A stretch of 64,000 nt of DNA from Pseudanabaena mucicola str. Chao 1806 (lineage in GTDB: Bacteria > Cyanobacteriota > Cyanobacteriia > Pseudanabaenales > Pseudanabaenaceae), in assembly GCF_030323025.1 (NCBI RefSeq), contig NZ_CP097329.1, forward strand, positions 3,210,001 to 3,274,000. The letters run 5' to 3'. Under the pieces are notes generated by a model, which ran no database searches, was not told the DNA's origin, and was given only the letters and a program-made list of their open reading frames with translations. The translations under genes and the position numbers were made by a program. This document shows positions 53,728 to 55,381 of this stretch, piece after piece (the stretch's first letter is position 1; each line of letters opens with the position of its first letter).

Positions 53728-54444
53728 CTAACAGCTAAACGCTAACAACTCCTTAATCCCCTTATCAGCCACATCAAGCATCTGATCTAATTGCGATCGC
53801 GTGAAGGTATCAGACTCTCCAGTACCTTGCACCTCAATTAGCTTGCCCGTACTATCCATCACTACATTCATATCGACACTAACCGCTAAGTCCTCTTGAT
53901 AATTTAAGTCCAAAATGGGCTTGCCATCAATTAAGCCTACGGAGACAGCCGCAACGGCATTGCGAATTGGCGATCGCGTAATTTTGCCTTCTGCTAGTAA
54001 TCGATCGCAAGCTGCCTTAAGCGCAATAAATCCACCAGTAATTCCACCTGTGCGCGTACCGCCATCAGCTTGGAGGACATCAATATCCACAGTTAAGGTG
54101 TAATTGGTAATCGTTGTCATATCTAGAGCAGCTCTAAGACTACGCCCAATCAACCTTTGGATTTCTTGAGTCCTCCCTGATAATTTGGCAAATTCGCGTT
54201 GTTGACGAGGAATGGTGGATGCAGGTAACATTCTATATTCCGCCGTAAGCCAGCCTTGATTACTCCCCATAAGAAACTTGGGTACACCCTCATCAATTGA
54301 TACTGTACAAATTAATTGGGTATTACCAAATTTTGCTAATACTGATCCCGCAGGTGCTTTGGTAAATGGTTGTTGTAAGTGAACGGGGCGCAGTTGATCC
54401 CATGCTCTACCATCGGGACGTTGAAAATCGGATGCTTTACTCAT
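53728..54444 (-). CDS. rph: Ribonuclease PH
   Basis: 238 residues; phosphorolytic 3' exonuclease for tRNA ends. [13 protein letters not shown] at the start, [20 protein letters not shown] in the phosphate-binding region, and [16 protein letters not shown]. It lies 10 bp after the upstream kinase gene on the same strand and is probably cotranscribed with it. Confidence 0.96.
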
Positions 54445-54454
54445 AATTTCTCAA

Positions 54455-55381
54455 TTATTTCTTTTTGGGTTTCAGCCTTCTTTTCAGCAGGGTGTGACTT
54501 TGTCTGACAAAAGGAAAGTCAGGCTTAATTTCCAGAGCTTTATCATAAGCGGCGATTGCCTCATTATCTCGTTCCAGTTTCGCTAGAGAAAATCCTTTGG
54601 CAGCCCAAGCATCAGCATGATTGGGCTCAAACTTTAAGGCTTCTTCGATCCTAACTAGGGCTTCCTGTAAGGTTAGTAAATCATGCTCATTAATGCTAGA
54701 TAAAGAGGCGAACGCGGTTAAAAATCCTGGGGCGATTTGGTAGCGTTGGCGAAAATCGAAGCGTACCATTTTAATGTCACTACTAAAGCGCGGCTTACCA
54801 TTGACCTGTTCGATGGGGATATAGATAGGGGAACCGAGCATGATCGTTAGATTAGTATTTCCCTTTGAGTACCCTACTAAACAATTAATTTCTTTAACTG
54901 CGCCAAAATCTATGAGGACAATCTTGCGATCTGCGTTGCGGCGAATTAAATTAGCTGGCTTGATATCCCGATGCAATACTCCACGTTCATGCACAGATAC
55001 TAATATTTCTAAAATATCCTGTAATAGGTCAATAACAACAAATTCAGTCAATCGCTTGCAATTACCAATCTCTTTAGTCAGATCTTTAGCATCAGCAAAT
55101 TCTTGGACTAAATAAAATTCTTCGCCTTCCTGAAAGTGGGCAAGTAAACTTGGAATGCGATCATGTGAACTTAATGAGTAAAGAATTTCTGCCTCTTGAG
55201 TAAATAGGCGCTTCGCCGCCTCTAACACGAAAGGCTCACTTGAATCTGGTTTAAGCTGCTTGACCACACAGGTGGGATGGGTAGGTAGATCAATATCTTC
55301 AGCCAAATAGGTTTGTCCTAAGCCGCCACTCCCAAGATGACTATGAATTCTGTAATGCCCTCTAAGTAAGGTATTTAACAC
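54455..55381 (-). CDS. Ser/Thr protein kinase, C-lobe deleted, with TPRs
   Basis: 308 residues. N-lobe Gly loop LGSGGLGQTYLAED, Lys41 in VVKQLK, catalytic HRDIKPAN (Asp139) and IDFGAV (Asp158). Right after the activation segment (IPIEQVNGKPRFSSDI) the sequence jumps to KMVRFDFRQRYQ, which in related cyanobacterial kinases lies at the end of the C-lobe; about 50-60 residues (helices F-H) are missing in frame. Two TPRs follow (HADAWAAKGFSLAKLERDNEAIAAYDKALE). Catalytic residues remain, but stability and substrate binding are doubtful. Confidence 0.85.
   Translation of the reverse strand: MLNTLLRGHYRIHSHLGSGGLGQTYLAEDIDLPTHPTCVVKQLKPDSSEPFVLEAAKRLFTQEAEILYSLSSHDRIPSLLAHFQEGEEFYLVQEFADAKDLTKEIGNCKRLTEFVVIDLLQDILEILVSVHERGVLHRDIKPANLIRRNADRKIVLIDFGAVKEINCLVGYSKGNTNLTIMLGSPIYIPIEQVNGKPRFSSDIKMVRFDFRQRYQIAPGFLTAFASLSSINEHDLLTLQEALVRIEEALKFEPNHADAWAAKGFSLAKLERDNEAIAAYDKALEIKPDFPFVRQSHTLLKRRLKPKKK

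What the first reader, a model, noticed from the sequence alone, without database searches (positions are those of the whole stretch)
54455..55381. Kinase with an in-frame deletion of the C-lobe
Gly loop, Lys41, HRD and DFG are all there, but SSDI is joined directly to KMVRFDFRQRY, removing the YAVG...LD block found in related cyanobacterial kinases. TPRs remain in frame. The frame is open, so the short form may be expressed, perhaps as a pseudokinase-like scaffold.
Basis: partly seen in the sequence, partly recalled or inferred. Interest (0 to 1): 0.6.

Follow-up and report, generated by a model that had tools for sequence, protein, structure and literature searches.

The report
Decaying kinase with two deletions
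A cyanobacterial signalling kinase gene has lost, in two clean in-frame deletions, half of its catalytic C-lobe and its membrane anchor; it is most likely a dying gene in one Pseudanabaena species rather than a new kind of protein.

Summary
The 308-aa ORF (55381-54455, minus) keeps the Gly loop, K41, HRD and DFG. It lacks exactly 47 residues (141 bp; alpha-F to alpha-H) between SSDI and KMVR. It also lacks a second block of about 135 residues: linker, the single transmembrane helix, Pro-rich stretch and first TPR helix. Two assemblies of the species carry both deletions.

Of 26 genus genomes, 17 have an open frame with complete C-lobe and transmembrane helix, 2 (this species) the short form, 3 frame-broken relics, 4 none found. 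On this lineage 12 of 120 genus-invariant kinase residues changed. Kinase dN/dS is 0.17 against 0.07 elsewhere (p=0.007), still far below 1; neighbouring rph shows no rise. AlphaFold gives the remaining C-lobe low confidence, the full-length relative's high.

Best reading: a recently inactivated, decaying membrane Ser/Thr kinase. A retained short protein, for binding or as leftover translation ahead of rph, is not excluded. Pseudokinase is the wrong label: active-site residues are kept while the fold is cut. Ordinary, low interest.

The parts
54455..55381 (-). ORF of 308 aa: truncated Ser/Thr kinase-TPR gene carrying two in-frame deletions
   Evidence: Pfam Pkinase matched only to profile position 172 of 263; orthologue alignment
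54773..55378 (-). retained kinase part, residues 2-203 (N-lobe, catalytic loop, DFG, activation segment up to D202)
54772..54773 (-). deletion junction 1, between I203 and K204: 47 codons (141 bp) absent, alpha-F to alpha-H (helix names by recall of the kinase fold)
54668..54772 (-). remaining end of the C-lobe and start of the linker, residues 204-238 (KMVRFDFRQRY...LLTL)
54667..54668 (-). deletion junction 2, between L238 and Q239: about 135 codons absent (linker, transmembrane helix, Pro-rich stretch, first TPR helix)
54458..54667 (-). remaining TPR part, residues 239-308
   Evidence: Pfam TPR_1/TPR_2 at 256-289; helices 232-251 to 290-303 in the model
53728..54444 (-). rph (RNase PH family, named from recall) directly downstream; its start codon lies 10 bases after the kinase stop codon. 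Used as the control gene for selection

Best explanation
The ORF is the remnant of a membrane-anchored Ser/Thr kinase of the cyanobacterial kinase-TM-Pro linker-TPR type that has lost its function in this species. Two separate in-frame deletions removed the alpha-F to alpha-H core of the C-lobe (47 aa) and the linker with the transmembrane helix (about 135 aa). Without alpha-F, on which the kinase fold is assembled (established knowledge of protein kinases, recalled), the C-lobe should not fold, so no phosphotransfer and no membrane signalling are expected. Shown: both deletions, their presence in two assemblies of the species, low predicted C-lobe confidence, excess change at invariant residues, elevated dN/dS, and breakage or absence of the orthologue in other species of the genus. 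Inferred: loss of activity, recent timing of the inactivation, and that no protein function is maintained.
For: Two deletions against the full-length orthologues. Of 26 genus genomes: 17 open frames with complete C-lobe and transmembrane helix (one, G006, without a recognisable TPR), 2 short (same species), 3 broken relics (G010 with a frame break near the transmembrane helix; G019 joining about residue 70 to 403 and then shifting frame; G039 with a frame break near residue 118), 4 with no orthologue found, in one of which (G004) tRNA-Lys and rph lie about 460 bases apart without it. 12 of 120 invariant kinase columns changed, among them G18S, F21L and G186I; the 18 genus orthologues change 0-6 each in leave-one-out counts, and the sister clade 1-2 of 123. 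Codon 186 differs again between the two assemblies (I/N) where all 18 genus orthologues and the outgroup have Gly. Kinase dN/dS on this branch 0.166 against 0.073 (p=0.0074); rph 0.043 against 0.057 (p=0.57). AF2 block pLDDT of residues 181-240 is 45-67, against 80-97 for residues 181-270 of the full-length relative.
Against: The frame is fully open. dN/dS on the branch is well below 1 for the kinase part and the whole ORF (p 3.5e-10 and 1.6e-11 against neutrality), so most of the branch was under constraint; if constraint ended, it ended recently. Both deletions kept the frame (1 in 9 by chance). If a tenth of the branch were neutral, about 1.8 stop codons would be expected and none is seen (P 0.16). 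The start region is well conserved with the sister species. The single difference to the second assembly is too little to measure present selection. The frame breaks in G010 and G039 could in part be sequence errors of draft genomes; I could not check reads.
Confidence: 0.7

Rival explanations
1. The short form is a retained, soluble, kinase-dead binding protein: the N-lobe and TPR part bind partners of the old pathway or of paralogous kinases (the scaffold idea).
For: Open frame and both deletions in frame; dN/dS below 1; both assemblies of the species keep it; the TPR part is 82-87% identical to the three sister genomes; 24 places in the genome score over the Pfam kinase cut-off (this one included), many of them paralogues that could be partners.
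Against: Constraint is relaxed in the kinase part, and in the tail neutrality is not rejected (0.341, p=0.07 against 1; TPR alone 0.323, p=0.14). Residues changed include invariant Gly-loop and P+1 positions. The membrane anchor is gone. The short form was not found outside this species (capped list). The orthologue is broken or not found in 7 other genus genomes.
Confidence: 0.17
2. The frame stays open because the ORF lies 10 bases upstream of rph and its translation helps rph expression (a leader-like role), while the protein itself does nothing.
For: Stop-to-start distance of 10 bases in the window and in G002. The kinase lies upstream of rph on the same strand, by coordinates within roughly 550 bases, in 13 of the 17 genus genomes with an open complete frame.
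Against: In G019 a frameshifted relic lies upstream of an open rph, and in G004 rph follows tRNA-Lys with no kinase between. In 4 of 17 genomes the two are apart.
Confidence: 0.08
3. The protein is still an active kinase with a minimal C-lobe.
For: K41, E63, HRD, DFG and D202 are kept; the model still superposes on kinases at Z up to 16.
Against: Alpha-F to alpha-H are absent and the model is of low confidence there; the Gly loop and P+1 loop are changed. The structural match shows descent and says nothing of activity.
Confidence: 0.03
4. Assembly or sequencing artefact.
For: None found.
Against: A one-contig genome and a separate MAG of the same species carry both junctions.
Confidence: 0.02

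Closest known systems
Pseudanabaena orthologue, 453-533 aa (stop-to-stop frame) kinase-TM-linker-TPR (L029-L035, L037-L046)
   Same: Upstream of rph in 13 of 17 genomes; 72-82% identical in the kinase part
   Different: Has the complete C-lobe and a transmembrane helix; all but L045 also have an aligned TPR end
Cyanobacterial STKs with TPR (cbSTKII-TPR of PMC2176072, passages seen)
   Same: Kinase domain and TPR in one protein
   Different: That survey set aside 17 of 303 proteins that lacked all or part of an important catalytic domain; this ORF would be of that sort (my judgement)
Bacterial Ser/Thr pseudokinases (PMC12599244, passages seen)
   Same: Predicted inactive kinase homologue
   Different: Pseudokinases there are called by loss of active-site residues; here those residues are kept and the fold is cut
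SpkE (Slr1443) of Synechocystis, reported without kinase activity (PMC2176072, passages seen; PMC3102658, abstract start in the search listing)
   Same: Cyanobacterial kinase homologue without expected activity
   Different: SpkE lacks conserved catalytic residues; this ORF lacks a structural block

Membership tests
Active Hanks-type Ser/Thr kinase | Gly loop, beta-3 Lys, HRD Asp, DFG Asp | tested here: met
   all present, Gly loop altered at G18S and F21L
Active Hanks-type Ser/Thr kinase | complete C-lobe (alpha-F to alpha-I) | tested here: not met
   47 aa absent; Pfam match ends at 172 of 263
Active Hanks-type Ser/Thr kinase | phosphotransfer activity | not testable with these tools
   needs an assay
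Pseudokinase | loss of one or more of the ATP/phosphotransfer residues | tested here: not met
   K41, D139, D158 present
Pseudokinase | kinase fold retained | tested here: inconclusive
   AF2 places a kinase-like N-lobe, C-lobe block pLDDT 45-67 over residues 181-240; superposes on kinases at Z up to 16
Pseudogene in decay | large deletions relative to orthologues, absent from sister species | tested here: met
Pseudogene in decay | relaxed selection | tested here: met
   kinase part dN/dS 0.166 against 0.073, p=0.0074; 12 of 120 invariant columns changed; neutrality of the whole branch is rejected
Pseudogene in decay | frame disrupted by stops or frameshifts | tested here: not met
   open frame in both assemblies
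Membrane-anchored kinase-TPR protein | single transmembrane helix between kinase and TPR | tested here: not met
   best 19-residue hydropathy 1.54, inside the kinase (residue 112), against 1.97-2.71 in 17 of the 18 other genus orthologues examined (the exception, L036 at 1.42, has its frame broken there)

The most novel reading that the evidence does not exclude
A kinase without alpha-F to alpha-H is kept as a soluble N-lobe plus TPR binding protein, made by two in-frame deletions that removed the catalytic core and the membrane anchor together: a pseudokinase-like scaffold born by fold truncation instead of active-site mutation.
Probability: 0.12. Interest if true: 0.5.

Novelty: new member of a known kind. 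Interest (0 to 1): 0.2.

Why it matters
It is a clear case of signalling-gene erosion in a cyanobacterial genus with many kinase genes: the same orthologue stands complete, cut in frame, frameshifted or missing in related species. It also warns that motif-based kinase annotation (Lys, HRD and DFG present) would list this ORF as active. If the short form proved to be expressed and used, it would be an unusual route to a kinase-derived scaffold.

Tried and rejected
Assembly artefact: rejected, two assemblies share both junctions. Full-length copy elsewhere in the genome: none found; the next best match is a different paralogue at 57% identity. Slippage between direct repeats as the cause of the deletions: by eye on the breakpoint flanks only about one base of homology was seen at each junction, so no repeat mechanism is claimed. 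The short form as a common type: not seen in the junction search. 179 of 388 class genomes had some match; the two of this species scored 130-133 bits over the whole 65-residue query and the next match 47 bits. The structural search of the short model gave bacterial and eukaryotic kinases at Z 14-16; this shows only descent and was not used for function. Two literature searches gave context; nothing on this gene was seen in the listed titles and abstracts, and no claim of absence from print is made.

Limits of the selection test: seven taxa, a fixed topology in which the window lineage is sister to the G002/G021/G022 clade (a quick tree, groups the four with support 96, but places the window among the three with support of 45-53), my own codon-model code, and no correction for several tests. 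The tail (residues 207-308) alone is not significantly raised (p=0.067), nor is neutrality rejected there (p=0.07). With the stem of the sister clade as foreground, dN/dS was 0.28 but not significant (p=0.34). The window branch is also long at neutral sites (1.44 against about 0.65 on the path to G002), so the raw contrast of 12 against 1-2 changed invariant columns overstates the relaxation; scaled, about 2-4 would be expected. 'Orthologue' was judged by identity (72% or more over the kinase part) and partly by position beside rph, not by a tree of all kinases.

Changed after checking: the identity range was widened to 72-82%, the capped list and the non-significant tail test were added, G006 is described as lacking a recognisable TPR, and one search was made to confirm that L134 (G040) is contained in L058 and that residue 186 is Gly in the 18 genus orthologues and the outgroup.

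Full report
What is there. The window lies in a one-contig 4.53-Mb Pseudanabaena-type genome (the genus is judged from the named relatives). The ORF at 55381-54455 (minus, GTG, 308 aa) matches Pfam Pkinase over profile positions 1-172 of 263 and ends in TPR. The Gly loop, K41, E63, HRD, DFG and D202 are present. I203 is joined to K204 where the nearest orthologues have 47 more residues.

A second deletion. Alignment with 18 genus orthologues and one outgroup shows a further in-frame gap between L238 and Q239: 135 aa against the G021 protein. It contains the only strong transmembrane helix, the Pro-rich linker and the first TPR helix. The short product is therefore predicted to be soluble and without much of its C-lobe. 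A second assembly of the species (L058, of which the G040 locus L134 is a part) shares both junctions; over 6,895 bases it is 99.6% identical to the window (27 mismatches) and in the gene differs by one codon, I186 to N.

Distribution. together cover 26 genus genomes. 17 have an open frame with complete C-lobe and transmembrane helix (in G006 the TPR end is not recognisable), 2 of one species have the short form, 3 have relics with broken frames (G010, G019, G039), and in 4 no orthologue was found (G004, G007, G016, G038; G016 is only 76% complete). In G004, tRNA-Lys and rph lie about 460 bases apart without the kinase; in G007 and G038 neither the kinase nor tRNA-Lys was found near rph. Frame breaks in draft genomes may partly be sequence errors. 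Thus the short form is not a common close type, and the gene seems dispensable in the genus.

Selection. In the kinase part, 12 of 120 columns that are invariant in the 18 genus orthologues are changed in the window; the orthologues, each left out in turn, change 0-6. Taking the G002/G021/G022 clade out of the reference set (15 orthologues left), the window changes 12 of 123 and these three 1-2; allowing for the window's longer branch, 2-4 would be expected. A two-ratio codon model gives 0.166 on the window branch against 0.073 elsewhere for the kinase part (p=0.0074), and 0.188 against 0.109 for the whole ORF (p=0.026). The tail alone is not significant (0.341 against 0.140, p=0.067). Neutrality of the whole branch is rejected for the kinase part and for the whole ORF, not for the tail (p=0.07). 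rph shows no rise (0.043 against 0.057, p=0.57). A mix in which about a tenth of the branch was neutral would give the kinase value (inference); about 1.8 stop codons would then be expected and none is seen, P 0.16.

Structure. With the same 26 sequences, AlphaFold2 gives the full-length relative (L066) a C-lobe with block pLDDT of 80-97 (residues 181-270), and the window protein 45-67 over residues 181-240, with lower values also around residues 101-140 (67, 76, 86, 72 against 83, 95, 96, 89). The rows are few and mostly from complete kinases, so this is supporting evidence only. VIA-align matches to bacterial and eukaryotic kinases (Z 14-16) show descent.

Interpretation. The simplest account is recent loss of function of a membrane kinase by two deletions, with the frame still open by chance or because of weak remaining constraint. 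A retained binding protein and a leader role for rph remain possible. The pseudokinase label fits poorly: bacterial pseudokinases are called by lost active-site residues (PMC12599244, passages seen), whereas here those residues are kept and a helix block of the C-lobe is lost. An earlier survey of cyanobacterial kinases excluded 17 of 303 proteins that lacked all or part of a catalytic domain (PMC2176072, passages seen), so incomplete kinase ORFs are not new.

Noticed in passing
outside the window: G000:C1:2592132-2592710 (L157, L180) and G040:C85 (L179): Another kinase-like stretch in the same species carries one TAA inside, in both assemblies: possibly a further decaying kinase.
   Followed up: partly
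outside the window: G000:C1:3003349-3005185 (L181) against G040:C2 (L178): A kinase followed by a domain ending in GFRVV is one 612-aa frame in G040 but split into 249- and 378-aa frames in the window's genome, with only 93% DNA identity; its variable end recalls targets of diversity-generating retroelements (recalled, not tested).
   Followed up: partly
G009:C596 and C557; G014:C13 and C6: Two genus genomes hold two copies of this kinase orthologue each.
   Followed up: no
L045 (G006:C335): This orthologue keeps the kinase and transmembrane helix in an open frame but has no recognisable TPR end.
   Followed up: no
window 54840-55115 (+): A 91-aa ORF on the opposite strand of the kinase; taken as chance.
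   Followed up: no
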